NCBI RefSeq assembly: GCF_000003605.2
Contig: NW_003153265.1
Span: 1 to 20,346, forward strand
Direction: 5' to 3'
Length of the DNA: 20,346 bases
Source: Saccoglossus kowalevskii
Lineage: Eukaryota > Hemichordata > Enteropneusta > Harrimaniidae
Numbering within the stretch: the stretch's first letter is position 1; every line of letters starts with the position of its first letter. Positions 1-20,346 of the stretch are shown here, piece by piece. Made by a program: the position numbers and the translations under genes. The notes beneath the pieces were generated by a model. The model had not been told where the DNA came from. It saw only the letters and a list, made by a program, of their open reading frames with translations, and did no database searches.

Positions 1-1240
1 ATCTTGCATTCTAGACATGAAACGTTCGTCAAATAATCACATCGAGCAAGTGCAATTTGTCATGAGCCACGCAGGCTCGAAACCCGTCATCGCTGCTATG
101 CAGCTATATTTGATATTATTTTTTATTTTTACCAGACACTATAAATTATAATGGCTACTTGTTTGCTTGTTCAATAATGGGCCGTATTTTAAGACGTGGT
201 CTTTAAATTTAATGTATTTCGCTCGACCGTGAACTCGTTTCTTTCACGAATGAAGAGCAAAACAGACCGCTGAGGGCAGCATACATGAATTGGCCGAAAA
301 AAAATGGATTGAGTCATAAAGATCAGTACAGGGTGTCAATTTCTTAATTGGTCCATCAATATATTTATCTCGTTTCTATGGCATTAAGAGACAGAAGTAT
401 GACAGAGTTTGAGCCTCCGGCCATAGAATGTGGTGGGGTATAGGCACCTAGCCTGTGTACCGGTTTAAAAACAAATGTTAAACATGTTACACCAGTGCAC
501 GGTTTTAGTAACCGTGTTTAGTGTAAAGATAAATGCGGGACACGTGAGCTTCACTGCTGCATTCCATCGAATTAATACTCTTATGTTTGCTGCCAAAACA
601 AGATTACCCCGGGTAAACATTTATCTATAACATCATAAATGTAACTAATACCTTTTTACTTTGATAAATTGTAACCTGCGTGTTTATCAAAATGTAATCA
701 TACCAAACAAAATTATCTAAACATGCTAAAACATACTGGAAGTTAACAATATTGGCGAACAAACCATATGTTACCTAAGATGGGTGTTTTATTGAATTAT
801 TATAAAATTATTATGACATGGATTTTTATGAAATCTGTTGCAAATCTGTCGATTTGAAATACGACAGACAGTCTTCAAGTTTTTAAAATAGTTCTTAATT
901 GGTGAAAAATAGTTATTCGTGACGTCCAAATCAATAATCAATACGTAATAGTGAAATAAAAACGCTCAAGCGAATCAGCTTATATTTCTCTGTGCTGAAA
1001 AATGTATCCGGCTTTTGGCAAAAAAGTGTCGCCACATGATGCGGCTGAAACTTGAATATGACTTTAAGTTGCAAAACACGTGTACACCCCCGCATGGTTC
1101 ACCCCTTGCTGTTTATCTTTTTATTAGTAAATTATTCCCTTCTTATGGCTGTTCGCACTGTCCGTATGGGTTGCAAATTACATCGCATGATTCCAGCGTA
1201 AATTGGCGTGGTTATTTCATCAAATAAAACGATAAATAAA
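1..1240. other. 5' flank of the CAMTA gene, no gene seen
   Basis: No convincing exon, RNA gene or transposon was found here. The only sizeable open frame (1015-1227, + strand) has no recognisable motif and no splice or promoter context. The stretch 1-600 is somewhat richer in CpG than the long intron downstream (for example around 180-280 and 410-550), while 600-960 is strongly A+T-rich. Distal promoter or enhancer sequence for the gene starting at about 1447 would be expected here, but none can be identified by eye. Confidence 0.5.
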
Positions 1241-1446
1241 ACAAAATCGGTGAGCGTGTCCTTCGTATTTCACAACTCGTTTACTTCGGTTGCCCGGGTG
1301 ACAGGATAGCGCCCGCTACCGCGAAGACATGGATATGCGTAAGATGTGAGATTATTTCACAAAGCGCCCAAGCTCCGCGAGAAGTGACCGAGAGCTGGAA
1401 TGAAATGAATGTGTTTTCAAGAAACATGGACTAAACTCGAATTGTC
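1241..1446 (+). promoter_or_regulatory. Probable proximal promoter / 5' leader of CAMTA with upstream short ORFs
   Basis: This block has a cluster of CpGs (for example GCCCGGG near 1293, GCGCCCGCTACCGCG near 1310, CTCCGCGAG near 1374) that stands out from the A+T-rich surroundings, as at many animal promoters. It lies directly upstream of the proposed CAMTA start at 1447. If transcribed, the leader would hold three short upstream ORFs: 1329-1349 (MDMRKM), 1400-1408 (MK) and 1405-1434 (MNVFSRNMD). The last is in frame with the proposed start and stops 12 bases before it. No TATA box or initiator could be assigned, and the transcription start site is unknown. The promoter call is an inference from composition and position. 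Confidence 0.35.
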
Positions 1447-1468
1447 ATGGCCTTAACGTCCAATGAAG
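1447..1468 (+). CDS. CAMTA: CAMTA, candidate first coding exon (MALTSNE + 1 base)
   Basis: This is a candidate start exon for the calmodulin-binding transcription activator whose CG-1 exon lies at 2508. ATG at 1447 has G at -3 and G at +4, a favourable animal start context. An in-frame TAA at 1432-1434 means the frame cannot extend further 5'. The frame reads MALTSNE and then one base (G) before a donor AAG|GTAGGA at 1469. That phase-1 end joins the phase-1 acceptor at 2507: G plus AT makes Asp, giving MALTSNE-D-DQQQ with no stop. The implied intron is 1039 bases, GT-AG. Short, poorly conserved N termini ahead of CG-1 are known in animal CAMTAs, so homology cannot confirm this exon. The evidence is phase, splice site, start context and CpG setting. 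The main alternative is a different or additional first exon (see 2031-2157) or one upstream of this window. Confidence 0.55.
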
Positions 1469-2030
1469 GTAGGACTTACCAGCAGAAGCATGGAATTTGA
1501 CTTTCATGGATGCTGTTGTATGGTTGATTGTAAATCGGAGGGTGCTTATCATTCATTGCAACCAATTCATGGTACGATGTTATTAGGTTGTGTTGCTTAG
1601 TGTACGATCTTAGCCGACTCGCTGACCGATCTTTGTACGCATTCTCGCCGCTTACGCTGTGTGGACTTGATCACTGCGACGAGACGGGCTCGACTGTTTA
1701 TTTTTTTAACTAGACCTCTGCTTTCTCACTCATAAATCCACCAGCTCGCTTACATATCGTATCGAATATACGTAATTTATACCGGCATTCATTTATTAGG
1801 TATTTTTTAGGATTGATGAAGCCTTCATCGTGACTAACCCCTTCTTTGTAATTTTACTTTGTTGTGTAAATAATGGCTGTTTTGTAAACAACGTTGTATT
1901 ATCAGAGAGTCGCTCTCAAGTTCAAGAGAAAAAATATTACATTGACCATTCAATGAAAGACCTGTGTTTATGAGTTACCCTTTACGTGTGTTTCCGTGTG
2001 TAAATTTGTTTGGGTCTTGGCCAGACAGAA

Positions 2031-2157
2031 ATGTATTCGCGTTCGTATCGTCCGCACCAGGGAAAGTATTTATTTCGCTTGGAGTCAAAGACTGGCATGT
2101 CGAGCGAGCACCAGCCACATATCATGTATATTATTCCCATTATGCTGCAGCTGCCGA
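2031..2157 (+). CDS. Possible alternative first coding exon of CAMTA
   Basis: This is a weak candidate. ATG at 2031 has G at -3, and an in-frame stop at 2001-2003 closes the frame upstream. The frame begins MYSRSYRPHQGKY and runs 42 codons plus one base to a donor-like GA|GTGAGA at 2158. This is again phase 1, so it would also splice in frame to the CG-1 exon at 2508 (A plus AT gives Asn). The segment has more CpG and more complex sequence than its flanks. I recognise no domain and know of no matching CAMTA isoform. Phase agreement alone occurs by chance one time in three, and other overlapping frames are also open here. It may be ordinary intron sequence. Confidence 0.2.
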
Positions 2158-2460
2158 GTGAGATTTTATATGAAAACAATACGCCTGTGACTTCAGTGTG
2201 ATCTGTCAACCAGCAGGGTCTGAAGTGGTGTAGTTTTCCTCTGGAAACCACAGGGGAATCACACATTGAATAACTATATGGTCTACTAGTTGAATGTGGT
2301 AACCTCACCACATTTCACATTTTTAGAACCACGAAAGATGACATCACACACTGGTTACTATGGTGATAAACAAATTTATACACTTGTTTTTTTGATGATA
2401 ATATTTATTCTCCCAAACTGAAATGAAAACAAAAAAACTGTAGAATGAAGATAAAATATT

Positions 2461-2507
2461 AAAAACAAAAAAAAGACACATGTTTTTTTGTTGTTTTTTT
2501 GTAATAG
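2461..2507 (+). promoter_or_regulatory. 3' splice site of the CG-1 exon with A-run/T-run hairpin
   Basis: The acceptor AATAG at 2503-2507 follows a long T-rich tract (2483-2500). Just upstream, AACAAAAAAA (2464-2473) is perfectly complementary to TTTTTTTGTT (2483-2492), with a nine-base loop. The RNA could therefore fold part of the polypyrimidine tract into a 10-bp A-U stem. Whether this affects acceptor use is not known from sequence, and a second T run (2494-2500) stays free. Confidence 0.6.
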
Positions 2508-2623
2508 ATGATCAGCAGCAGAAAAGCAAACCAGCTGTTCCGGAGAAAGTTGACAAATTCATTTCCAAGTTACCTAAGCCGAAACTGTTCCCGAAAGAAA
2601 GACATCGATGGAATACGAATGAG
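2508..2623 (+). CDS. CAMTA: CAMTA (calmodulin-binding transcription activator), exon opening the CG-1 domain
   Basis: CAMTA proteins are nuclear transcription factors with an N-terminal CG-1 DNA-binding domain, then a TIG domain, ankyrin repeats and IQ motifs that bind calmodulin. This 116-base internal exon has a T-rich tract and AG acceptor at 2507 and a donor GAG|GTCAGT at 2624. With one base from the preceding exon it reads 39 codons, xD-QQQKSKPAVPEKV, then DKFISKLPKPKLF and PKERHRWNTNE. The ending PKERHRWNTNE matches, as I recall it, the start of CG-1 in human CAMTA1 (LPKERHRWNTNEE), and the preceding Leu-Pro-Lys-rich stretch is also family-like. The exon ends in phase 0, so the next one should begin with the Glu-Ile-Ala equivalent. 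I could not find that exon in the window. Only about 11 residues carry the homology, but the Trp-Asn-Thr-Asn-Glu motif is very characteristic. The +1 frame from ATG 2508 is a shadow. Confidence 0.88.
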
Positions 2624-2944
2624 GTCAGTGTATGTTACTTTGATGTAAAAACTTGAGTTTTGACAACCAGGGCAGTTCATAATAACGTTATTGACGTAAA
2701 TTCATTTTCAATTGAACCATGGACATTCAAAAGAAAGATTAATAATGGCTATATATAAGCCAGATTAAGTTTCTTTTTTAACTCGTAGCCTACATCCATG
2801 ATTGAACATCATCAACTAATTTATTTAAAAAATGAAGGTACTTTTAAATGTTGTATTAAATATAATAAATAAGGTAATATTTTTTAAGCTGAGCGTGTCT
2901 AACTTTTCTATCATCAAATTATACTAAATGCAAATATACTTCCC

Positions 2945-3043
2945 TCAGTTCTCCAAGGCACGCAATTCTTACTCGTGGATACTTGAAATATTCCAATTAC
3001 AGAGCTTCACTGTCAAGTATCCACAGTTGTGCCTTTTCACTGA
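2945..3043. repeat. Imperfect ~99-bp inverted repeat (hairpin)
   Basis: The arm GTGGATACTTG (2975-2985) is perfectly complementary to CAAGTATCCAC (3014-3024). Beyond an asymmetric internal loop, AAGGCAC (2955-2961) pairs with GTGCCTT (3029-3035), and TCAGT (2945-2949) pairs with ACTGA (3039-3043). The loop is about 28 bases. This could be a worn mini-transposon end pair or a hairpin RNA. The uneven internal loop argues against an efficient microRNA precursor. Confidence 0.5.
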
Positions 3044-4500
3044 TCCGCTGCTAAATGGGCTATTTGTAATTTCTGATTTGTCATGTCGATAAATAATGAT
3101 AGAAAGTGGAAATAAAAATAAACGCATTGGGCACAAAACACAGTAATAGATTTTTATACCTCATACAAATAATTGATGCCTTGGAAATATTAATTTAGTT
3201 ATAGCTAGCTTTTTCTCAAATTCTTGCATAATTTAAAGTATTAATTGGTAATTATTTAGCGTCAGTTTTCAACGACTTTGTTGCCTATTTTTTTTTTTTG
3301 ATGATGTGAAAAAATATTGTTTTCATCAATTGATTATTTTGACTATACATTCACATCAAACCTTATTTAATACTCTGTGTTTTTTTATATTTTATGTGAC
3401 AGATTGTCATGACAATGAGTTAGTTATTGTGCCATTTATGAACGAGTAGATTATTATGCTTGAACATGACATTTATATTTTGAGATAAATCCTATAATTT
3501 TGATAATTGTGTTCTAGTATTTCTAAAAAGTAGATATTTTAAATTAATCATTCTTCTATAACGTTTTGACCACCATGCCACCTTTCACAGAATAAATAGC
3601 ATAATTTATTCCTTATTTTTTCCAATTTTGCTGCAAAATTAACAAAAGAAATTAAAAAAAAATATGTTAATGTAAAATATTGATGATAAAAATTATTGCA
3701 TCAAAGGTAATGGAACATTTAGGTGAAAATTTGTATTCACTGCAGTTATATAACCTAAGACAGTTTTTCAATGTAATCCAAGATTTCAATGAATTAAATG
3801 TAAAAAAAGATATCTATACCAAGTAGATAACCTTGACAATGAGATGGATATTCAATAGCTTGACCTTGATAGGATAATAAAATAGTGCTTCATATTGAGT
3901 GTTCATATTATAATAAAATTAAATATTATCATTAATACTTTATAATTGCTCAAATTATGAAAACAAACTGAGTCAGATTCTTTTTTCAATTTGTTGTTTT
4001 GTGTGTTGGGGTGCATTAATTAAAGGATGACTTATTTTGTTTGACACAAGTATCTTGAAGCAAGACTTGTTGATTGTTATTGCCTTGGGTACGGTAGGCT
4101 CAATGAAGACTTGTTTGATTTCACATGCATTATCCAAGTACCGGTAGTATGATATTGGTACAATATTTCTAAAGATTTGTTATTTTTCCATTCATTGCAT
4201 TGCAGCCTAACATCAATTTTGTAAATATTTCTGAATTCACCTCCTGAAAGGAAATCCATTCCATGCTGCCACAGGGCAAGTTATAGTCATGCCTTGTCTA
4301 ATTATTATTCTTACTGACACCCCACGCCTAGTAAGAGTCTATTTATCTCTGTATGAGATGTTTCTTGAAATAAACTGATTATGAACAGTTCAACATAATA
4401 TCAACTGCTCATTATCTCAATATTGGGGTATCTGAGTGTCAGTGCGATTACTATTGTCAGAACCTAGGCAATTAATAATGTTAATTACAAATTAATCATG

Positions 4501-4508
4501 TACATGTA
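4501..4508. repeat. TACATGTA palindrome (one of at least nine)
   Basis: This is an exact copy of an 8-bp palindrome that recurs at 6542, 8087, 13017, 14236, 17985, 18129, 19877 and 20016. It represents a dispersed over-represented word rather than a local feature, and no function is claimed. Confidence 0.7.
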
Positions 4509-4614
4509 TTATCTGTTATTAAATAATGATCCAGCTGTTTTAAAAGTATTATGAGTTAATATAAATGCTATATCCTGAGTATGAGTAGTTTTATCAAAGC
4601 TAAAGTCCCTTTTT

Positions 4615-5022
4615 AGCTCCGCTGTCGACTTTGTCGAACGGAGCTTATCATATGAGTGATTGTCCGTCGTCGTCCGTGTCAATGTTTTACTTTTTCGACT
4701 TCTACTTGAAAACTACAAGCCTGAATGCCTTGATACTTGGTGTATATGTACCTTGGGTAGACCTCTCTCAGATTTGTTAATTTCATGATGATATCTTTAA
4801 TTCTCTAATTTTGATGAATATTTTTGTAAATTTTGGTAAAAAGTAATATTTTCGACTTCTTGTTGAAAACCGCAAGTCCAATTGCTTTGATATATTATAC
4901 ATATAGGTACTACATGTGGACCTCTCTCAGATTTGTTCATTTTCTAAAGATATCTTCTGTTCTTTAATTGCCATGTGCATTGCTAACAGCGGAGCTATCT
5001 CAGCCGACAGGCTGCTTGTCTC
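4615..5022. mobile_element. Non-autonomous repeat element with AGCTCCGCTGT inverted ends
   Basis: The left end AGCTCCGCTGT (4615) is the inverted complement of ACAGCGGAGCT (4986-4996), apart from one base in the adjoining position. At the left end AGCTCCG also pairs with CGGAGCT at 4638-4644, so the tip can fold on itself. Inside are two copies of a ~158-bp module, each with TTCGACTTCT (4694, 4851), a GAAAAC...CAAG stretch, and ACCTCTCTCAGATTTGTT (4761, 4920). The right end continues with CAGCCGACAGGCTGCTTGTCTC (within 5000-5022). The GTCCGTCGTCGTCCGTGTC segment near 4661 is CpG-rich against its A+T-rich surroundings. I have an impression of similar elements in other marine invertebrate genomes but cannot name the family. 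No open frame for a transposase is present, so it would depend on another element's enzyme. Confidence 0.65.
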
Positions 5023-6052
5023 AATAAAAAAGCACATAATTTTACATTAGTTTTTCACAAAGATTTCAAACAAGTCCTATAGCCAATGACGAATTACAGA
5101 CAAATACATAACGCAAAACATACGTACATATTTTTTTTGAAAGATTTTGATCAATTGCTGTAGCCAGTAAGAAATTTGATCTAAAATTAATGAAGAAATT
5201 ATTGACAAATACATTAAATTTGTAAAATGTTATACAAAATGTTCAAAAACTGTGCTCACAATTTTCTTGTAAACGTTGTACTGTCTGTATTTTATCAAAA
5301 GCTAGACCAACTTGTCCTACATCTTTGAAATCGGCTTCATCTACCCTGGTATACAAAATGTAGTTATTTACGTGGTTTGTATGTGATGACAAAACTACTG
5401 CCATTAAAACTAATATGATTTGAATTTTATTGATTCAATATATATTATTTATGAATGTTGGTACTAGTATTCTATTCAAAACTTAGTTTTAGGATTTTAG
5501 ATAAGTGTCCTGCAGACCTGATCTGAATTCCAGATGATTTGAAATACAGGAAGCATTTCTTTTAGCAAAATAAAAAGCCAACTATACAACATATTTATTG
5601 TTGTTTCATGTATTTTAGATTTTTAACTCATCCCGACTATGACAGCATGTTTGTGTTAAAATACACTGTATGAATGGTTACTGTTGTATATGATTGCCAA
5701 GCTGTGTCGGTTGCCACCCTAAAGTTCAGTTATGGGTCTCGCATTTGAAAACTGGGAGTTTGAGCTTAAAGGATTTTGAAAAGAGCAATTATTGTGGGTG
5801 AAGGGAGAGAAAAATTAAACTTTCCATTATGACTTCATAATGTAAAAGAATAGGAAAAATGTGATGAAGAAAAATATCAGCATGCAAATATGAATAAGAT
5901 ATTTATAATAATAATAATAACAATTTATTGACATTATTCATTTTAAATTGAACATAGGCAAATGCTATTCTAAGTATAAGAAAAAAAATTACTGCAAAAG
6001 AAAAAAAAATAATAGAATTAATTAATTAAAAATAAAACAAAAAATAATAGTA
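5023..6052. other. A+T-rich intron sequence, no gene seen
   Basis: No exon or RNA gene is recognised. A short (ATA) microsatellite run with an ACAATTTATTGACATT motif lies at about 5905-5935, and a very A-rich low-complexity stretch occupies about 5980-6052. The latter leads directly into the 140-bp tandem duplication at 6053. Confidence 0.5.
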
Positions 6053-6320
6053 GATATAAATTTTCATATTGTAATATGAACATAAAAATTAGTTTTGTTA
6101 TATAATACCAAATTAACAAAATAAACAAATATGATAAAAAATATATATATATATATAATGTATATAATATATACATTGTAAAAAATAATATCAGATATAA
6201 ATTTTCATATTGTAATATGAACATAAAAATTGGTTTTGTTATATACCCCGGTAATACCAAATTAATAAAATGAAATTTAATAAATAAAAATAAATATATA
6301 TAATATATACATTGTAATTT
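6053..6320. repeat. 140-bp AT-rich tandem duplication with internal palindrome
   Basis: Two adjacent units start at 6053 and 6193 with GATATAAATTTTCATATTG. Each carries the palindrome TTCATATT-GT-AATATGAA, then CATAAAAATT and a TTTTGTTATATA segment, and ends near TATACATTGTAA. The first unit has an (AT) run at about 6142-6158. The second has an insertion reading CCCCGG at about 6245. The 80-codon minus-strand frame here (6018-6260) owes its repeated FMFILQYENLYL segments to this duplication and is not a gene. Confidence 0.8.
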
Positions 6321-6640
6321 ATCATTACTAGCAACAATTCAAATTCCTCAAGTACCCTTCCCAGATTTCAAATGGGAAACCTTTATTACCCTTGTTTGTT
6401 TGAAAAGAAAAATGAATGAATAATTCATGAAAAAGGGAATTGATGATCTGAATACACACTTGACACTGTTTTTTCAAGTGAGTCAAACTCAGTCACTGTG
6501 ACCGTGATGTGTAACATTCACATTGTAATCTCTTCACCATCTACATGTAGTAATGGACTGCTGAACAGAGAATCACAACTGCATATCACTATCTAGTGCT
6601 CAAATCTATTCAAAATAGAAGTTAAAGTAAAACTTAAAAC
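6321..6640. other. Short unique intron stretch
   Basis: Nothing gene-like is seen between the AT-rich duplication and the TTAA-flanked element. One TACATGTA palindrome lies at 6542-6549. Confidence 0.5.
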
Positions 6641-6805
6641 TTAAAGCGAGGGAGTCGTCCCCTGGGCATGCATCAGATGGCCATAGGGTCTCATTGTTTA
6701 CAAACAAGCGTCTACCCATGAGCTTTTGCGTTTTTAGCGTGTGTTGTTATCGTTGATTGGGACTCAATTCCTACGCGTGCACAGGTGACGACCCTCCCGC
6801 CTTAA
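6641..6805. mobile_element. TTAA-flanked inverted-repeat mini-transposon (MITE)
   Basis: A TTAA at 6641-6644 and another at 6802-6805 enclose a 157-bp body whose ends are imperfect inverted repeats of about 30 bp. The left end reads AGCGAGGGAGTCGTCCCCTG, and the right end read inward on the other strand is GGCGGGAGGGTCGTCACCTG, followed by matching GCA(T/C)GC. A duplicated TTAA target is the hallmark of piggyBac-type transposition, so this is probably a non-autonomous relative. The first base of the two ends differs and the body codes for nothing. Its G+C content is higher than that of the surrounding intron. Confidence 0.75.
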
Positions 6806-8037
6806 GAAAGTGCTGTGTGTAGTAATAATTATAGCCTGCCATAGAAGTTTGATACCCTGTTATGGTTTCATTATTTTACTGCCATTCCATGCAAAGGACC
6901 ACATATCTTTATCCTATAGGATGGCAACACTTTGCCTTGACCCAAGAATACATATCACGTCACCTCATATAAATTACTCCTGACCATGTTTGCTGGGATT
7001 CAAACGTCTGGATTTGTTTTCTGATATTTGTCTTTTGGAAATCACGAAATTTCTGTTCACACCTTTTCAGTGACCCCCCTAACTGACATAATATTAGCTT
7101 TTAGAATACTGCCTAGTTTTCTCATAATTGTCATCTTCCTGACACTGTGATGCAAAAATATAAAATGCATCGCCAGACTTGAGTAAATTTACAACAAGGA
7201 GACTTGTAAAATAATTAATATTATTATATGCTGCATGTACGCACATGAGAGCAATAACTAAAGCTCAATTTTCATGAACTTTAATTTTGAATGCCTTACA
7301 TTTTCCTGCTTAAAATGTTGTTGCCAGCTCATGCATATTTTTATGTATTTTTCTTTAAATTATTTATCAATATTGGACCAAGTAGACATTGCTCCCGACT
7401 GGTTATTGTTTTGATGAAATTTTTAGATAAAATATGGAAAAAAAAGGAATACAGGCTTATTTTGGAGAATGTCAGAAAGTTGACTTTGACATTTAAAATG
7501 TTAATGTGTACCATCCTGACAAAGTAAATACCGGTATTGTAAAATCTTTATGGGCCACCTCCAAAATAGTTATTTGTTTAAGGCTCTGGATTTATTATGG
7601 TATATGAATCAGCAAAATACCTGCAGACTTTGCAAATTATGGGACTAGCAACGGTAACTAAGTGAAATCAACATTAATTGTTGAAGCATGAATTGGTGCT
7701 AAACACACAGTAAGAGTAAAGTGCATTTACATGTGTAGACAAACGGCTATTATGTGCTTTTAGCGCTGCCTTCGTCATTTCACAGTGACATATTCCTGCA
7801 TTTAGTGGGATTGTGTGGAAATTTTTAAAAAATAATTAGTTGTTGATTGTAATTTGTATCAAAAATGGGCCCTGAGGCCAAAGTTTAAAAAAAGCTTTTC
7901 ATATCTTCTGACCTTTTTAGCATGGCCCTACTTACTACTGATTTTGTGTGAAATAACCCAAGGTGAAATTAAAATGTTATAAATTGATAGAGTCACTATT
8001 TTTCCCGCTTACTTTGCTGTCTATTTTTTGACTAAAT
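6806..8037. other. Unique-looking intron sequence, no gene seen
   Basis: No exon motif, RNA gene or transposon end is recognised. The 78-codon frame at 7291-7527 is A+T-driven, hydrophobic at its start and Lys-rich later, with no known motif. A TACCGGTA palindrome lies at 7529-7536. Confidence 0.5.
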
Positions 8038-10520
8038 TCATGGCCATTTTCATCCTCCCTTTATGGCCACTTCAATACTACATTAGTACATGTACCTCCA
8101 TGACTAATTCCATACTCTCACCATAGTTGTTTCCAGTTGGGCCCCTCCACACCACCTCTTCAACTCCCATAGTACTATCAACTTTCAATATCTGTGGCCA
8201 CTTCAACAGTCACTCTCTCTATATCTACTTCCGTATTCCATTCATGGTCAATTCATTATCATCTACATGGTGATTTCCAAACTACATCCTGGGTCACTAC
8301 ATCCCACCATGGCTACTTACCCATACCCTCCCTAGTCATTTCCTGGTCAATTATCTGCATGGCCTTTTCAATACACTTCAATGGCCTTTACCTCTATGGT
8401 CTCTCCCACATTCCTTCCATGGCCTCTTCCACACACCCTCCATGGCCTCTTCCACATATCCTCCATGGCCTCTTCTACATATCCTCCATGGCCTCTCATA
8501 TACCCTTCATGGCCTCTTCCACATACTCTTAATGGCCTCTCACATATCCTCCATGGCCTCTTTCACATACCCTCTATGATCTCTCCCACATACCCTTCAT
8601 GACTTCTTTCGCATATCCTCCATGGCTTCTTTCACATACCCTAGATCCATGGTCTCTTTCACATACCCTCCATGGCCCCTTTCACATATCCTCTATGGCC
8701 TCTCACGTACCCTCCATGGTCTATTCCACATACACGCATCTTCCATGGCCTCTACCGCATACCCTCTATGATCTCTCCCACATACCCTTCATGGCCTCTT
8801 TTACATACCCTAGCTCCATGGCCTCTTTCACATACCCGCCATGGCCTCTTTCACATATTCTCCATGGCCTCTCACTTACCCTCCATGGTCTATTCCACAT
8901 ACATGCATCTTCCATGACCTCTTCCACACACCCTCTATGATCTCTCCCACATACCCTTCATGACTTCTTTCACATACTCTAGCTCCATAGCCTCTTTCAC
9001 ATACCATAGCTCCATAGCCTCTTTCACATACCCTAGCTCCATAGCCGCTTTCACATATCCTCCATAGCCTCTCACATACCCTCCATGGCCCCATTCACAT
9101 ATTCTCCATGGCCTCTCACTTACCCTCCATGGTCTATTCCACATACATGCATCTTCCATGACCTCTTCCACATACCCTCTATGATCTCTCCCACATACCC
9201 TCCATGGCCTCTTTCACATACCCTAGCTCCATAGCCTCTCGCATACCCTCCGTGGTCTATTCCGTGGTCTATTCCACATACATGCGTCTTCCATGGCCTC
9301 TACCACAATGACATACCCTCCATGGCCTCTTTCACATACCCTTTATGGCCTTTTTCACATACCTTCCATGATCTCTTCCACATACCCTCCATGACCTCTT
9401 CCACATACCCTCCACGGCCTCTTTCACATACCCTCCACTGCCTCTTTCACATACCCTCAATGGTCTCTTTCACATTCTCTCTCTGGCTTCTTCCACATAC
9501 CCTCCATGGCTTCTTCCACATACCCTCCATGGCTTCTTCCACATACCCTCAATGGTCTCTTTCACATACCTTCAATGGTCTCTTTCGCACACCCTCCATG
9601 GCCTCTTTCACATACACTCCTTGGCTTTTTCCACATATCCTCCGTGGTCTCTTTCACATTCCCTCCATGGCCTCTTTCACATACCCTCCATGGCTTCTTC
9701 CACATACCCTCTCTGGCTTCTTCCACATACCCTCTCTGGCTTCTTCCACATACATACCCTCCATGGCTTCTTCCACATACCCTCTGTGGTCTCTTTCACA
9801 TACCCTCCATGGCCTCTTTCACATACCGTCCATGGCTTTTTCCACATACCCTCCATGGCCTCTTCCACATACCCTTCATGGCCTCTTCCACACACCCCCA
9901 ATGGTCTCTTCCACACACCCTCAATGGTCTCTTTCACATACCCTCAATGGTCTCTTTCACACACCCTCCATGGCCTCTTTCACATACCCTCCATGGCTTT
10001 TTCCACATATCCTCCGTGGCCTCTTCCACAAACCCTCAATGGCCTCTTTCACATACCCTCCATGGCTTTTTCCACATACCCTCCATGGCTTTTTCCACAT
10101 ACCCTCCAAGGCTTTTTCCACATACCCTCAATGGCCTCTTTCACACATCCTCCATGGCTTTTTCTACATACCCTCCATGGCTTTTTCTACATACCCTCCA
10201 TGGCTTTTTCCACATACCCTCCATGGCTTTTTCCACGTACCCTCCATGGCCTTTTTCACATACCCTCCATGGCCTTTTCCACGTACCCTCCATGGCCTTT
10301 TTCACATACCCTCCATGGCCTTTTTCACATACCCTCCATGGCCTTTTTCACATACCCTCCATGGCCTTTTTCACATACCCTCCATGGCCTTTTTCACATA
10401 CCCTCCATGGCCTCTACTGCATACTTTTAATGGCATCTTCCACATACCTTCCATGATCGTTTTAACACTCTTCCCATGGCCTCTTCCATGGCTGATTCTC
10501 CTCCTACCCTCCATGGGCAC
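8038..10520 (+). repeat. 23-bp minisatellite, about 2.5 kb, roughly one hundred units
   Basis: The unit is CCATGG followed by CCTCTTTCACATACCCT, with common variants (CCTTTTTCACATACCCT, TCTTCCACATACCCT, ATGGTCTC). The left edge (8038-8400) is badly worn and hard to align. From 8400 the units are clear, and at 10290-10404 five consecutive units are identical. Higher-order repeats are visible: a block with CCATGGTCTATTCCACATAC recurs at 8714, 8883 and 9127 and in altered form at 9250-9262, and a ~150-bp block at 9551 recurs 372 bp later at 9923. The + strand is strongly pyrimidine-rich. The core unit has no AG, no GT, and no stop codon in any + frame. All long open frames between 8194 and 10581 follow from this and should not be read as genes. 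Confidence 0.95.
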
Positions 10521-12567
10521 TAGGCTGAACATGTCTATGCAAATATGTACATATTATTATGTGATCTCATTGGAGACTTAAACAAGAGTTAGTAACATCT
10601 TGTTTCATTGCTGGAAACCCATATATTGAAATGATTTGAAAACATGCATACCTAGTGAATGTATAGATTTGTTTCTCACAAGATCTTGTCACCATGTTAT
10701 CATATTGTTAGTTACCGACTTGGTGTAATACATCTTTTGTTTTATAATCACACATTGATTCCCTCCATAAGTAAATTTTTCTGATGATTTTTTTTTTAAA
10801 ATTAGTAGCCTGTTCATAAATGTAAACACCCAGAATATTAATTTGGTAATGTAAAATTACATTCCTGACGAATATAATGACTTGTAAAAAGACTTGGTGT
10901 CACCAACCTATTTTACGACAGTTATTTTGTAGCAAAAAGTGGTAATTTTTTCAGTATGAAAATATTATGTCATATCTTGAATGACAGGTAACATACACCA
11001 TATATGACGGGGCACTGTTTGTTGTTCTGAATTATTTAAAAAATCTTGCTTCTAACAAGTGATAAAAATGCTACATTGTTTACTATCGATTTCTTCTAAG
11101 AATAACTATTTCTGAATGATATTTGCCCAATTAACTGTAACACTTGCCTTTTCCTGTTACCATGGTAATATTGTTCCATGATTGTAGGTAATAAAGCAAT
11201 GAACATAATCATTTATATAACCAACTTTCTCAAAAATAATATCTTGGCCATTGATCCATACTAGACAAGTTTTCGAGTTCCGCCATTACCTTATAAATTT
11301 GAGTGTTCTGGTGTTCCAATTTCGTCTGCATAGGGAGGTTTAATTCGACGCGTAAATGTTCAGCAGCTCATCAGAACAACATTTTGCCACTTCTTAAGTG
11401 TTTCCAATTGGCTATTATATTGATCAATATTTTGGAAAAGTTTAAGGGTTAAATCTTCAAGTACATTTTTAGTAGTTTTTTGTCCATTCTTGTTTAGTAC
11501 AAAGAACACCATATTATCAGCAGCCCTCATAGGCTATTCAAATTGTTCTGCGGATGCCTTACACAAAATTAGTAGCCCAACTGGACTACTAAAATTTACA
11601 AAATATTAGTACTTTTGTTTTCTAAATAAACCAATTTGTCTTGATATTAATATATTTTGTTTGACGCTTTTCTGCATAGCTGTAAGTACCTACTAAACTT
11701 GATGGACTATACAATGTTACTATGGAACTACTAGCTTGTTTAACCGGTAGCCCAGCAAACTTCCAAATATAAATTTAATAATATCTAGAAAGACGAGAAG
11801 TCTTTATGAGATTGCCTAGAAATATAAATAGTATCCCTACATAGTAATTAACACATGTTCATTTGGGGTTAATATGTATGCTTTAATATTCTTGCATAAT
11901 TCAAGGTTTGGCTGGGTAATAAAGTTAACATTTTATTAACCATACTTTATTAAGCAGTGACCATATAATGTTGATATCAGCAGTTTTTAACTGTGGGAAA
12001 CGTTGTAACTGTTAATGAGCTAACATTATAATTATCTGTGCCATTAAATTTATCAGGATTTTCAAAAGCTGTGGAGAAAAAAGTACAGAAAGCATATTAT
12101 GTCCATCTTCAGCTGTCATCGCCTTTGATTTCCTTTCTTGTATTTGTTTTATCTTTTTACTTGCTTTCACAATCACCAAAGTTGCGTTGCGGTGGATCAC
12201 ACATATATAGCCATTGAGAGTTTCTTTTTACTCATTTTCTGAAAATTTCATGAAAAACTTGTCTCTTGTAAAAATAAAGGAGTGTTACGTTTTTGGGACT
12301 ACTTTATTGCATGCGTCAGAATACATACTTTTGTAATGGTGTTATGTGTCACCTGATCTCCCAAGTGTATTAATATGTAAAGAGTACTGCGATTGGTAAC
12401 TGAAAATGGCGGAATAAACAAGAAGTTAAATTTGAAAGCTGTCTGGTTTCTTTAATGTTTTGTGTGTTCCTGAGTCAATACATCAACAAATGACGCCACA
12501 AAGCAATAAACCTAGAAAAATTTTTTTTTTATAAAAACCTTTACAACTTGTGCATGCAAAATAAATA
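10521..12567. other. A+T-rich intron sequence, no gene seen
   Basis: No exon, RNA gene or transposon was recognised. A small hairpin (TTAGTAG at 11569-11575 with CTACTAA at 11586-11592) is present. CCGCCATT at about 11281 has an inverted counterpart, AAAATGGCGGAA, at about 12402. The latter resembles the YY1 binding consensus, but that is only a word match. The 62-codon minus-strand frame at 12012-12200 shows no known motif. Confidence 0.5.
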
Positions 12568-12702
12568 CTGTGAAATACTTTATTTCAGCTGGAATTAATT
12601 TTCGCTGAAAAGACTTTTTAGGTGTTTTGTGTGGATTTTATTTTCACTGGAATTGTGAAAATAACGAAAATTAATTCCAAGCCAAAATAAAGTATTTTAC
12701 AG
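12568..12702. mobile_element. TA-flanked inverted-repeat mini-transposon, copy 1
   Basis: The element begins CTGTGAAATACTTTATTT and ends AAATAAAGTATTTTACAG, with TA on both sides (12566-12567 and 12703-12704). The inverted ends extend about 48 bp and include GGAATTAATTTTCG on both arms. TA target duplications suggest a Tc1/mariner-type non-autonomous element, which is an inference from the flanks only. The centre contains a further small palindrome (ATTTTCACTGGAATTGTGAAAAT region). A folded transcript would be an almost continuous hairpin. There is no coding capacity. Confidence 0.8.
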
Positions 12703-12704
12703 TA

Positions 12705-13781
12705 TATCTTATTTTTTGGTCTTGCATAATACGATTGATTAATTATAAAAGTCAGTGTCAAATAAGTAAAAAAACTAAAATGCTGGTGGTGACAGACATG
12801 TTTATAACTGAGGGGCTTTGTTCAGACACTAAACTTCCCTGGGATTCATAGCAGATCACTGAAATGCTATAATAAAGTTAACGCCGTTGGGGTTTAAAAG
12901 ATCTTTATTGTCTGCATATGTTGTCTGTAGTTGATCTGCTTTACACATTGAATAGGCACGTATTACAGTTATATCAGTTCTATTTTTACGAAGCTTCAGT
13001 GTACTCTCCTGGGATATACATGTATGTTTGTCTAGGTTTGTTGGTCAGTGCTGCAGATGCTCTAAGAAATATTACATCTTTAAAGTTCTAATACTGATTT
13101 TACTTTAAAATTTGGGTATTCAGTTTCATGGTTAATATATAACTAACCTTATTAATCTGCTAGTAACTGTAAAACACCCTCAGGTCTGAGTATAATTTTG
13201 ATTACAATTTTTGATGCGCAATACTATGTTATGTCACATTTAATGCGGGTATGAGTACTGAGTGCAGAAAGTCATGAAATATTCATTCTAAACAACCAGT
13301 GATTAAAAACAAGATATATAAATGGACAATGTTACGTTGATGTTCAACAGATACAAGTATCCCCAGGTTCCCTTTTTGAACCACAGAGGATCATAATACC
13401 TAGAAAGTACCTTAATATCACCTACAAGTTTTCAAGGTTCAAAAATCATATTCAGTTATGACCCATGTTAAAATCCCATGCCGAACTTTTCCCTCATACG
13501 GCTATTTTAAAAGGGGCAAAGGGCTGGATATACTGTCAACATGTCTCTGTGACTGTTCCAGGGAAGTGGGGATTGTACAGCATCGTAATTGGAAACGTGC
13601 CCTCCATAGAAATTGAAAACCAGAAGCTGCTAAAATTCTGACAAGAAACAAAAAGCAAAGCTGTGAGGTACAATGTACAGAGTTTTAACTTGTGTGCCTT
13701 ATGACAAAAAACATGAATATTTTTTTTTATTAGGCTTTACCGGTATCTGTAAATTTTAATACCACTTTACAAGTACATGTG
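12705..13781. other. Intron sequence between the two sister mini-transposons
   Basis: No gene or exon is recognised. TACATGTA lies at 13017-13024 and TACCGGTA at 13738-13745. Nothing here resembles a transposase, so the two flanking elements do not bound a larger composite element that I can recognise. Confidence 0.45.
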
Positions 13782-13783
13782 TA

Positions 13784-13991
13784 CTGTAAAATACTTAATT
13801 TTTGCTTGTAATTTATTTTCACTATTTTCGCTGAAGGGATGATTCAGTAAAAATAAAACTCAGCGAATATACCTTTCTTCATACGTTTTACATTAAACTC
13901 ATCACAAATCAGTGAAATTAAACTTTATACAACAGACTCAAAAAATCTTTTCAGCGAAAATTAATTCCAGCTAAAATAAAGTATTTCACAG
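13784..13991. mobile_element. TA-flanked inverted-repeat mini-transposon, copy 2
   Basis: This belongs to the same family as the element at 12568. It begins CTGTAAAATACTTAATTT and ends AAATAAAGTATTTCACAG, flanked by TA at 13782-13783 and 13992-13993. It is longer (208 bp), with an unrelated centre. Its right end, read on the other strand, agrees with the left end of copy 1 at all but one base over about 47 bases (13945-13991 against 12568-12614), so the two copies are in opposite relative orientation. Its own left end is more worn. Confidence 0.8.
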
Positions 13992-13993
13992 TA

Positions 13994-16900
13994 AATTAAA
14001 ATATTCTTAGGAAGAATGAGTCTTGTCTTCGAGACTTGTGTAATATGACGGGGTGATGTTGTACGCTGAATTTGCAATCAAATTTTGAATATTTTCACAT
14101 ACTATATTAACTATTTAATAATGTAGGATTATTACTTTTGGTATTTTATAAATATTTAGATATCGCATCATATTTACAAGCAATATTTTGATGAGTCACG
14201 ATGTATAATAAAAAAATGAGGATTTCCTGCAAGCGTACATGTATTTTGATTAGTATTCAGAAATTGATATCTCCATCGCTGGCACCCTGTCATGCCTCTG
14301 GTAAGCATAGCTGCTCATGTTGGTAATGTCGGTACCCTGTAACAGTAACTGGAGTCAGAGGTCACAAAGATCATCAACCTACAAAAGTGCTTCTTTTTAT
14401 GTAAAATGACAGACATGTATCTGTGGTGTTTAATGACTTTAAGTCACTATGGTATTGGCATGCATGGAATCAACATGTAAGTCATTTAGTGTCATTGTCC
14501 TTGTAAAATTAATTACTGTCTTGTATTGTAGGTAGAGATCCCATGCTGCAACATTTTATTCTGTATCCATGACAACCAAATTCACCTAATTATTGAATGT
14601 TGATTGCAAAGTTTATCAGAAGGTGGTCCTCATGCTGTTTCCTAGCAACTAAAGTAGCAGTGTGCAATCCCGATGCAAGATGAAAGTCTTATTTTTCAAA
14701 AAAAAATAATGAATGATGTCATAAAGTGATTAATTATTCATGAGTGAGTTCATTTAAATCTATAAAAAAGAAAAGAATGAATTACTCCTTGTGCGTCTCG
14801 TGTATTAATGCAGAGCCTCATCTCATGCTGAGAAACACCCTTGTTGCTCGTATGTCTCGTGACACAGAATAGAATCATACAAGGAGCTGAACTGCTTCAC
14901 TTCGAAATTTGAATTTGCGTAATTTTGCATTCTGCTGAAGTATTTGTATAGGAAGCTATTATACTTAGAAGGGTTTCCAAGAAATTGATGTGTATCAGGG
15001 GAGTGCTATTTTTTTATGTTTACCTGTAGACAGTCATTAAACTATGTAAAGTATGTAAACATTTTTTACTATATTGCTGTAATATTATTTATTTACATTT
15101 AAATATTTTTAAGTTGCCAAATGTTAAAAACAAATCATGTTTAAACAGGAAACCTGTGATGTTCTCACTTTTTTCGTTCAGCTTTTGGTTTTAATTAGTA
15201 TACAGGTGTCATTCATGATATCATAGCTTTATTGCATGATTAAAAATATATAATGAAATTAAACAATACCAAAACTTTTGTTTTGAACACTGTGAATAAC
15301 TTGTATTAGGTTTAAATGTGATATTGAAGTCCCTAGACTAAGTTTTCACTTTTCGAGTTCAAAATCCAAGTACTTGCAATGTCCTTCAGACTTTTTTTCT
15401 ACCCTGATATATTAGTTCATGTTTAGACTGACATTTTAATAGGAAATGCATTTTACGAGTCTTTTGAGGCTTCCATGCTGGTACATAGTATAGAAAATTC
15501 ATGAGAACGTTACGTCTATGGAATCAATAATTTTCATTTTCATTTGGTAGTCAGAATTTTATTTCCTGAATAAGCACAATAGACACAGCCTCATCATTAT
15601 TCTGTTTGTACATAAACATGGCTATTGTGTAGTTTTTAGAGTTTGTGGGGGAGGTCCTCCATATTTCGCAACTGAGAAACTTTGGTATCTCAGGGGTGAA
15701 GCTATGCCACAGAACACTGTATGTTGCTAAAACACACACCACTGTGCCATGTATAGGCTCTGCACGAACTGCTATGGAGCACCAGTCGAAGAGCCTTGAA
15801 AACAGCTAAAGTCGATTTTTGTGAGTTTTTGACCGCTGTTTTCTTCGGTTTTGCTTGCTAGGCGGTGAAAATACCTGATGTTCGCTCCCAGAGTTAAGTT
15901 GGTAGTTATGTATTGTTCAAATAACTATTGTTCTGTCATTGTTATTGTGGAGCTGGTCGATGCTTATCAGGTTTACCCACCTAAGGTCACATGGTTTCTG
16001 ATGAATTTAGTTCCAGGTTGATGGTGCATGACAACCGACTTTTGTTCACGTAGTCTAACAGGTTATTTGACAACATTGTCAATGAAGTACGTAACAATTT
16101 AATATGTAACAATGGACAGTCTGCAAATTTCTTTCTTCTGCTTGGCTTCAGGGAATTCGTGACACAGTACATGCATTATATTGCAGTATTTGAATCCTAA
16201 TGTCCCTGGTGCTTATATAATTACTGAAAAGAAAAGACTTCTTTGGTAGTATTAAAACTGCAATGTACGGTGCACAGTAAAAATGTTGTGAATTTACCAG
16301 GCGTGGTTTATATCAAAAAAATTGCCTTTCATCCATAAATTAATTGCATTTGAAACCAGTCTATATTTATCATATTATAAATTTGTAAAGAAATAAGCTA
16401 TTACATTTTATGTAATTTTTTATGAGATTAAAGAATAAATATACCACTGAGACCCGTCTTTTTTAAAACATGAAAACTTATACAAAATTATTCTTATCAC
16501 ACTATAGTCATTGCTAACTATTTGCGTTTCAAGCCTTGCTTTTATATTGATGGAGCACATCAGCGGTGAATCATACACATATCTTATCGTTGCTGGGAAT
16601 CCAACAACAAGGTTTGTAACGCAAATTAAGTTGGCAATGGTCGCCACATGATAAAGGTGAATTGTACTCAATAAAAAAAATGGCATGATGTCACACTCAA
16701 CAAAACAAAATTACCGAGACTTAGAGTTGCTGCATTCTGGATGGTGAAATAGATAAAACTGCGATACTAAAATATATGATACTGCATAGATGGAGATGAG
16801 AACCAGACAGTGGAAGCAATGTCTTTCCCTGTTGGTGACCTCTGACCTGGGCATGTTTCAAGTTTCATATTAGCTATGGGATACAGCTTTTAATGTACAT

Positions 16901-17317
16901 GACCATGGAGAATATGACACATCATCACCTCAGTGGCATACCATCTATGTCTCAGTCATCATCAGTGTTGATCCAGTCATGAATGAATTAACTATTATAC
17001 CCATACAGAATAGTAATGGAAGGTACCATTATTGACATATTTTTAGTGTGGTTTATTTGACATGCTCATTAAGTTGGTGTTTAAGTGTTCAATTCAAGTT
17101 TTATTGGCACTAATACAATCGTGTGTTCTCATGAACCTAATCTCCGTGTCAGATACAGTGAGTCAAAATGAGATCAATAAATTATGTGAGATAATCCGAC
17201 TTTAGTCATAATCTATTTTTTCGTACACCTCAGATGGAACTCGCTGACACCAGAAACATTTATCTACATGGTTTAGCTCAGCTGTCTGACAGATTTCCTG
17301 CTATGAATAAGGGGTAG
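13994..17317. other. Intron sequence, no gene seen; one CpG-bearing block
   Basis: Mostly unique-looking A+T-rich sequence. The stretch about 15745-15960 is less A+T-rich and has a run of CpGs (GCACGAAC, GTCGAAG, ACCGCTG, GGCGGTG, GTTCGCTCC) unlike its neighbours. It may be a worn transposon or a regulatory element, and I found no clear ends. TACATGTA lies at 14236-14243. The minus-strand frames at 15551-15742, 15987-16172 and 16420-16686 contain no motif I recognise. Confidence 0.45.
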
Positions 17318-17396
17318 ACCATTTAAAATTCTAGGGGAGGGCAGGAAGAATGAAAAAGTGTACAAATTTCTGTCCACTCCAACAATTTAAAATGGT
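17318..17396. mobile_element. 79-bp element with ACCATTT-type inverted ends
   Basis: The left end ACCATTTAAAATTCTAGGGGAGGG (17318 onward) and the right end CACTCC...AATTTAAAATGGT (to 17396) are imperfect inverted repeats: ACCATTT/AAATGGT perfectly, then A-run and G-run/C-run matches. The size and layout fit a very small non-autonomous element or a solo hairpin. No clear target duplication was seen and there is no coding capacity. Confidence 0.45.
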
Positions 17397-17523
17397 TCTT
17401 CCCTCAGTCAATGTAGACACTATCCGCTTAAATTTAGTTTGGTTTTTGACTTCCATGTGCGATGCACACAATGGGAGTCTTTGCATTTACCCTGTCTGTA
17501 CTTGTGTATATGTGTGAAGTCTG
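17397..17523. other. Short spacer before the ~150-bp module array
   Basis: Nothing recognised. The 69-codon minus-strand frame that spans into the array (17420-17629) has no known motif. Confidence 0.4.
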
Positions 17524-18580
17524 TCCTTGATATCTCAAGAACCGTTTGTCGGTTTTTAATGAAACTTGGTGCATAGATGCTCTGGGCTAATGTGCAGATT
17601 TGATTAGGTTTTGGTTGAAATCCATGCATATTAATTACCTAATTTGCATGATAATTAGCTAATTTTTAGCTGTTCCATGACTGTTCCACTGATATCTGAA
17701 GAACCTTTCATTGGATTTTGATGAAACTTGTTACGTGGATGCTCTAGACTAATGCACAGATTTGATTAGTTTTGAGTAAAAATCAATGCATATAATTAAC
17801 CTAATTTGCATAATGATTAATCAATTTTTAGTCTTTTCCACTGATATCTCAGGTACTAATCATCACATTTGACTGAAACTTAAATAGATACATAGGACAA
17901 TGCACAGACTGATTCGTGAAATATTAATTACTTAATTTGCATAATTAATCAATTTTAAGCTTTTGATATTTAAAGTACCGGTACTACATGTATTACTTCA
18001 TTACTTTTTAATGAAACTTGGTACATAGATGCTCCAGAACAATTCAGAGACCTGATTAATTTTGGATAATAATGTGTGCATATTAATCAATTAATTTGCA
18101 TAATTAGTTAATTTTTGTTTTTCGTAAGTACATGTACTAATTATCCCATTTCAATAAATCTTGGTACGTAGATGTTCTAGGACAATGCACAGACCTGATT
18201 AGTTTTGGGTTAAAATCAGTGCATATTAATTACCTAATTTGCATAATTAGCCAATTTTCAGTTTTTACACTGATTTCATACAAGTATGTACTAATTATTC
18301 CATTTCAATGAAGCTTGATACGTTAATGCTCTAGAACAATGCACATCTCTGCTCAGTTTTGGGTTAAAATCAGATCATATTAATTAGCTAATTTGCGTAA
18401 TAATTCATAATTTTTTAGCGCCTTGAAACAATATGCAGACCTAAATCTATGTACAATAATTGCTTAATTTGTATAATAATTCATTTGGTTCATTGCGTTA
18501 ACCACACAGACATGATTAGTTTAATGTTGATAAACATGTATATTGATTATCTGTTATTAGCCCATTTCTGACATCTAAAA
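17524..18580. repeat. Decayed tandem array of ~150-bp modules
   Basis: Each module runs roughly TGATATCTCA, then a GAAACTTGGTACATAGATGCTCTAG-like stretch, ACAATGCACAGACCTGATTAG, TTTTGGGTTAAAATCA, and then ATTAATTACCTAATTTGCATAATTA. The anchor AATTTGCAT (or a close form) recurs at 17641, 17803, 17934, 18093, 18236, 18390 and 18466, giving steps of 162, 131, 159, 143, 154 and 76. Six modules are near complete. The seventh is cut short, and further worn traces reach about 18580. The modules differ from one another by many substitutions and small indels, so the array is old. No open frame spans it. Origin from a transposon's internal repeats is possible but not shown. Confidence 0.85.
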
Positions 18581-20346
18581 AAATCAGATTTAAATTCATT
18601 ACAGAGGTGCTCTGGAATTAGACTAAAAACAATGGATGAAAATTCAAATGTATTTTCTGTATGTATTATAAATTTGATAATGTGAATCACATTGTTTTCA
18701 AGTTATGCATCTCAAATTGCAGACAAATACTAGTTGCCAAGCTTCTTATTTGAAACCAAAACTGAAATTTTGAATTATTTTAATGTGTCTCCAATACTTT
18801 CAGCACACAGAAGTTCTTTCTAAGCTTTCTTTGATTTTTAACGGTAATGTTCATCCACACTCCTCATTGGTCATCATCTCCATGATAATTATGGGCTTTG
18901 CTAACACTCTCCAGTTACCAGTGGCAAACTACATTTAAATTTGAGGACAACATGTATGAATTTAAAAAAAACAAACAGGACAAGACTACTTAAAAAGTGA
19001 TATTAATTAAAACAAATTGACTGACTTAGTTTTCATTGAAATTAAAGTAGGTTGCATAAGAGACACATCAGTTTTGCGTGCAGACTTGTTGATGCCCTAA
19101 GCTACTGAAAAGTCAATCACAGCCAAATTTACATAAATGCAGTGTTCGACTGTTTTCTGACCCTGTTATCTTGTGAATACCGTTGTTTTTGAACTACTTT
19201 ATACTACTTTGTCAAATGCTTACAACCAAAAAGTATCCAATAAAACTGCTTTAATATACAGTGTATGTAGGCAGCATATATATATTTATTTCACTACCAA
19301 TTCCATCTTTTCATCACAAATTCACAAAATAGTTCTGTTTATAGTCTGCACTTTCTTTCAGAGGGTTGGGATAAAAGTAGCCAAGCTTTTTGAGTAAAAA
19401 TTGAAAATTGACTAAAATTTTGTCTGTTGGCTCCAAAATTTGGGTTCATTTCCACAATTTTTGAAGAAAGCAGGTATAAGAAAAAAGTGGAGAAATTTGG
19501 ATGAGAAAGTTTGGTGGTGAAAAGGTAAAACAGTGTTTATGACATAAATCTTGCCTGTTCTCTCGTGACTTTGTGTAACGCAGTCTTTTAGTTTGTAGCC
19601 ATCATGGACAGTTCAGTTTCTTGATTTTCAACAATACTAACTACTTTGGCTATTTAAAATATGTTGGTAATGATATATAATGGAGTATTGTCGACCTGAG
19701 CTAAAACTATACCTGTCTCACCATTCAATATAATGGTTGAGTCCAAACCACACTTCAGTCAAATTCTTTTTTTCTACCCAAAACCTTATCGTTTTTCAGA
19801 CTTGAAATATTCATTAACCTTTTGCATGCCAAAGCCAGCATTCACAAAATTGAACTTGCATTAATTTTGATCAAGATACATGTATGTAGTCTTTAAATTA
19901 AATTTAGAAATTAAATAAAGAAATTATAGAAAAATAATTAAAATGAACAAAATGTTGTACCAAGATTTTTTGCAGGTTATAGCAGGTGCCAAAATAAACT
20001 GACTATTAAAACTGCTACATGTATCTCTCTATTAATATTTCTTGAAGCGTTGCAAAATTCCTTGCAAAATTTTTAGAAGTGTTTGTTACGATTCAGAAAT
20101 TTGAATATGGATAATAATTTCTCATGAGATTTCAGCCATATCTTTACAGCAATAAATTGAATTTTCATCCTCAACATAACACACAAGTTTTATGGGTAAA
20201 TAAAAAATTGAAAAAATAGGTGTATACCATAAGATGATTTTTACTCTCCAGCACACCTGTGAAAATCGTTGTGTATTGGGGTAGACTGGGGCAGACACAA
20301 ACTGCAAGAGTGTTCCAGGAGATATTGCATTGTCCAAGGGATATTA
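18581..20346. other. A+T-rich intron sequence to the window end, no gene seen
   Basis: No exon of CAMTA or of another gene, RNA gene or transposon end is recognised. A short AT microsatellite lies at about 19278-19290, and TACATGTA palindromes lie at 19877 and 20016. The 74- and 71-codon frames at 19173-19397 (+) and 20122-20337 (-) have no recognisable motif or splice context. Confidence 0.5.

What the first reader, a model, noticed from the sequence alone, without database searches (positions are those of the whole stretch)
2508..2623. CG-1 exon of an invertebrate CAMTA gene, not visible as an ORF
Seen: a 116-base exon with a T-rich tract and AG acceptor, a GAG|GTCAGT donor, and a peptide ending in PKERHRWNTNE. 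Known: this string marks the start of the CG-1 domain in animal CAMTA proteins. Inferred: the window is the 5' end of a CAMTA gene on the + strand. The exon is too short to appear as a long open frame, so automated ORF calling would leave the window without any gene.
Basis: partly seen in the sequence, partly recalled or inferred. Interest (0 to 1): 0.7.

Follow-up and report, generated by a model that had tools for sequence, protein, structure and literature searches.

The report
Early exon of animal CAMTA gene
A short stretch of this animal DNA is an ordinary coding exon from near the start of a CAMTA gene, which encodes a calcium-linked transcription factor; simple gene finders miss it, but the gene family itself is well known.

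Summary
Bases 2508-2623 carry the described acceptor, donor and open frame, encoding (..)DQQQKSKPAVPEKVDKFISKLPKPKLFPKERHRWNTNE. The DNA pattern for RHRWNTNE occurs once in the window and in 0 of 100 shuffles.

Corrections: by Pfam's boundary only about the last nine of 38 residues belong to CG-1; the rest is N-terminal leader. The exon has no in-frame ATG, so the start lies upstream. No further CG-1 coding sequence was found in the window, so the next intron probably exceeds 17.7 kb. ORF calling does not leave the window empty: it lists 25 frames, the longest (419 aa) in a 23-bp minisatellite, and misses this exon.

New: 1-2507 is not CpG-depleted (o/e 1.08), downstream DNA is (0.49, 0.45), as expected at a gene's 5' end. 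A possible first coding exon is 1447-1468 (MALTSNE), weakly supported. Splicing, species and the rest of the gene could not be tested. Low interest.

The parts
2508..2623 (+). Coding exon, 116 bases, entering in phase 1 and leaving in phase 0; leader plus the first residues of CG-1
2483..2507 (+). T-rich tract (16 T in 18 bases at 2483-2500) and acceptor AG at 2506-2507
   Evidence: no RNA data
2624..2629 (+). Donor GTCAGT after GAG
   Evidence: Rank 6 of 1092 GTs with a recalled matrix; homology stops here; no RNA data
2624..20346 (+). Start of a long intron; no further CG-1 coding sequence found in it
   Evidence: Best hit of the remaining domain in the window: E 0.34, at 2244-2318, upstream and with a stop
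1..2507 (.). Region not depleted of CpG; possible promoter side of the gene
   Evidence: CpG o/e 1.08 against 0.49 (2624-8150) and 0.45 (10600-20346)
1447..1468 (+). Candidate first coding exon (MALTSNE plus one base of a split codon); a guess
   Evidence: Start context GTCATGG, phase-1 donor at 1469; about 0.15 such candidates expected in 2507 bases (2 in 33,001 control bases)

Best explanation
Bases 2508-2623 are an early coding exon of a CAMTA (calmodulin-binding transcription activator) gene of an animal, probably an invertebrate, on the + strand. [quoted passage not shown] The message joins it in phase 1 to an upstream exon that holds the start codon, and in phase 0 to a downstream exon past 20346 that should begin Glu-Ile-Ala or similar. 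The product would bind CGCG-type promoter sites through CG-1 and calmodulin through C-terminal IQ motifs, as known CAMTAs do. Shown: sequence, frame, splice signals, similarity. Inferred: splicing, the full protein, its function.
For: Open frame and splice signals. 15 of 23 residues identical to recalled CAMTA1, ending at the donor; the recalled protein is CG-1 by Pfam, E 1.9e-44. Pattern once in the window, 0 of 100 shuffles; 35.8 bits against at most 25.0 in shuffles. CpG contrast between the two sides of the exon.
Against: Pfam does not recognise the bare peptide or the whole 70-aa open frame, nor does a PDB sequence search find the peptide; only about 9 CG-1 residues are present, so little could be expected. 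No second CAMTA exon was found in 20 kb.
Confidence: 0.95

Rival explanations
1. A stray duplicated or pseudogene fragment of a CAMTA exon, not part of a working gene.
For: Only one exon is seen in the window.
Against: Frame intact and both splice signals present; a single exon is expected if introns are long, as in human CAMTA1 (passages of PMC4741010).
Confidence: 0.04
2. The exon is not spliced at 2507/2508 but starts a protein inside it, at ATG 2480, reading through the T-rich tract (an alternative first exon).
For: The frame is open from 2444 and holds ATG 2480.
Against: The added residues (MFFCCFFVID) come from a typical T-rich acceptor tract followed by AG, rank 30 of 847. It would still be a CAMTA exon.
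Confidence: 0.05
3. Chance resemblance; not a CAMTA exon.
For: In a very large collection the pattern does turn up: 3 matches in the prokaryote contigs, 2 of 3 reading RHRWNTNE, neither followed by CG-1-like sequence.
Against: In 20 kb it is not expected (0 of 100 shuffles), the similarity extends upstream over 23 residues and it stops at a strong donor.
Confidence: 0.01

Closest known systems
Animal CAMTA (human CAMTA1, sequence recalled)
   Same: LPK....PKERHRWNTNE: 15 of 23 residues identical, ending at the same residue as the exon
   Different: The first 15 residues of the exon peptide (DQQQKSKPAVPEKVD) are outside the alignment
Plant CAMTA (Arabidopsis CAMTA3, sequence recalled)
   Same: RHRW at the start of CG-1
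   Different: Reads RHRWLRPPE after that; weaker match, E 0.027 against 3e-9 in the same two-sequence comparison

Membership tests
CAMTA, animal | Start of CG-1 with RHRWNTNE after an LPK leader | tested here: met
CAMTA, animal | Complete CG-1 domain (PF03859, 116 positions) | tested here: inconclusive
   Only about 9 positions fall in this exon; no Pfam match for the bare peptide; the rest not found in the window
CAMTA, animal | IPT/TIG domain, ankyrin repeats, IQ motifs | not testable with these tools
   Would lie beyond the window; the genome search did not complete
CAMTA, animal | Spliced, translated message | not testable with these tools
   No RNA data; splice signals only

The most novel reading that the evidence does not exclude
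This animal's CAMTA gene starts from a CpG-undepleted promoter directly before the exon, with the short first coding exon MALTSNE at 1447-1468, followed by an intron of more than 17.7 kb inside the very start of CG-1.
Probability: 0.25. Interest if true: 0.1.

Novelty: already known. Interest (0 to 1): 0.08.

Why it matters
It is an ordinary exon of a conserved gene. It matters mainly as a caution: ORF calling on animal DNA misses the one recognisable exon here and reports long false frames from a minisatellite.

Tried and rejected
Bare peptide and whole open frame against Pfam: no match. Peptide, and recalled CAMTA1 N-terminus, against PDB sequences: no match. RHRWNTNE pattern in viral contigs: 0; in genome contigs: 3, judged chance. 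tRNA and Rfam: none. Nine other frames of the window against Pfam: no match above cut-off, one sub-threshold DUF6888 at E 0.065; these are 9 of the 156 other stop-to-stop frames of 40 aa or more counted, so transposon remnants in the rest were not excluded. Text search for RHRWNTNE in the paper library: 0. A search for CAMTA in molluscs listed ten papers, none naming molluscs in the counts shown. Repeat block 17500-18600 against plasmids: none; one of its motifs in viral contigs: none. The bacterial promoter/terminator scan of 1-2507 says nothing about animal promoters.

First exon: four phase-1 donors of score 6 or more with an in-frame ATG lie in 1-2507 (433, 1469, 1572, 2158); 1469 is the only one with both a score above 8 and a strong start context. 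The first control was spoiled by the minisatellite (14 such donors on the whole - strand); recounted without it: 2 in 33,001 bases of both strands, the - strand of 1-2507 included, against 1 in 2507. Suggestive, no more.

Full report
What is there. Bases 2483-2500 hold 16 T in 18, then AG at 2506-2507, 116 bases, and GAG|GTCAGT. From 2510 the exon reads DQQQKSKPAVPEKVDKFISKLPKPKLFPKERHRWNTNE without a stop. It enters in phase 1 (two bases finish a split codon) and leaves in phase 0. In the raw DNA the frame is open from 2444 to 2653; from ATG 2480 it is 58 aa, so a 60-aa limit hides it.

What it is. Pfam recognises the recalled protein as CG-1 (PF03859, E 1.9e-44) from residue 70, the E of ERHRWNTNE. 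So the exon is mostly leader and holds about the first 9 of 116 CG-1 positions. Arabidopsis CAMTA3, also recalled and recognised as CG-1 (E 1.8e-52), matches less well (E 0.027 against 3e-9). The DNA pattern for RHRWNTNE occurs once in the window and in 0 of 100 shuffles. The recalled CAMTA1 N-terminus scores 35.8 bits in the window and at most 25.0 in the 197 of 200 Markov sequences that gave a hit. Against this, Pfam and PDB searches with the bare peptide found nothing, and neither did Pfam with the 70-aa open frame.

The rest of the gene. The remaining CG-1 domain has no credible match in the window: the best hit has E 0.34, lies upstream at 2244-2318 and contains a stop. The conserved centre of CG-1 should have been visible, so the next exon is probably past 20346 and the intron longer than 17.7 kb. 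Long introns fit human CAMTA1, where a 211-kb deletion is described as affecting exon 5 and loss of what follows exons 1-4 removes about 80 of 120 CG-1 residues (PMC4741010, passages seen). The exon has no in-frame ATG (codon list), so, unless ATG 2480 is used, the start codon lies in an upstream exon.

A further sign of the 5' end. CpG observed/expected is 1.08 in 1-2507 (97 CpG), 0.49 in 2624-8150 and 0.45 in 10600-20346. Among 1500-base windows at steps of 50, the highest is 1.24 upstream and 0.67 among those starting after 2600. GpC shows no such drop in the windows printed, which end at 6250. An unmethylated promoter followed by a methylated gene body would leave this pattern (general knowledge; methylation was not measured). 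Inside it, ATG 1447 in a strong start context and a phase-1 donor at 1469 would give MALTSNE and, across the junction, MALTSNEDDQQQKSK. Two such candidates occur in 33,001 control bases outside the minisatellite, so about 0.15 would be expected in the upstream region; there is no homology support. It is a guess.

How it works. As an exon it is spliced into a CAMTA message. CAMTAs bind the CGCG box through CG-1 and calmodulin through IQ motifs (PMC6690551, passages seen; PMC8428840, passages seen), and in worm and fly they raise neuronal calmodulin expression (PMC8428840, passages seen). For this gene all of that is inference from family membership.

ORF calling. With default settings 25 ORFs are listed; the longest, 419 aa, and the next two (316 and 292 aa) lie in the 23-bp minisatellite at 8391-10455. 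None is the exon's frame.

Limits. No animal genome or proteome was available, the genome search did not complete, and there are no RNA data. The species is unknown; 'invertebrate' is a fair guess.

Verdict. This is an ordinary exon of a known gene family; interest is low.

Noticed in passing
window 1-2507: CpG o/e 1.08 before the exon, below 0.5 in the stretches after it; possible promoter side of the gene
   Followed up: yes
window 8391-10455: C-rich minisatellite, 23-bp unit, about 88 copies, strong GC skew (about -0.6) and long false open frames
   Followed up: partly
window 17528-18552: Diverged tandem repeats of about 143-163 bases; no match in plasmids, and one 20-base motif of it has no match in viral contigs
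   Followed up: partly
window 12560-13996: Inverted repeat arms of 84 and 48 bases, 87-88% complementary, 1.1-1.3 kb apart, perhaps a non-autonomous transposon
   Followed up: no
window 6012-6317 and 4692-4969: Two-copy tandem repeats of 141 bases (AT-rich) and about 157-159 bases
   Followed up: no
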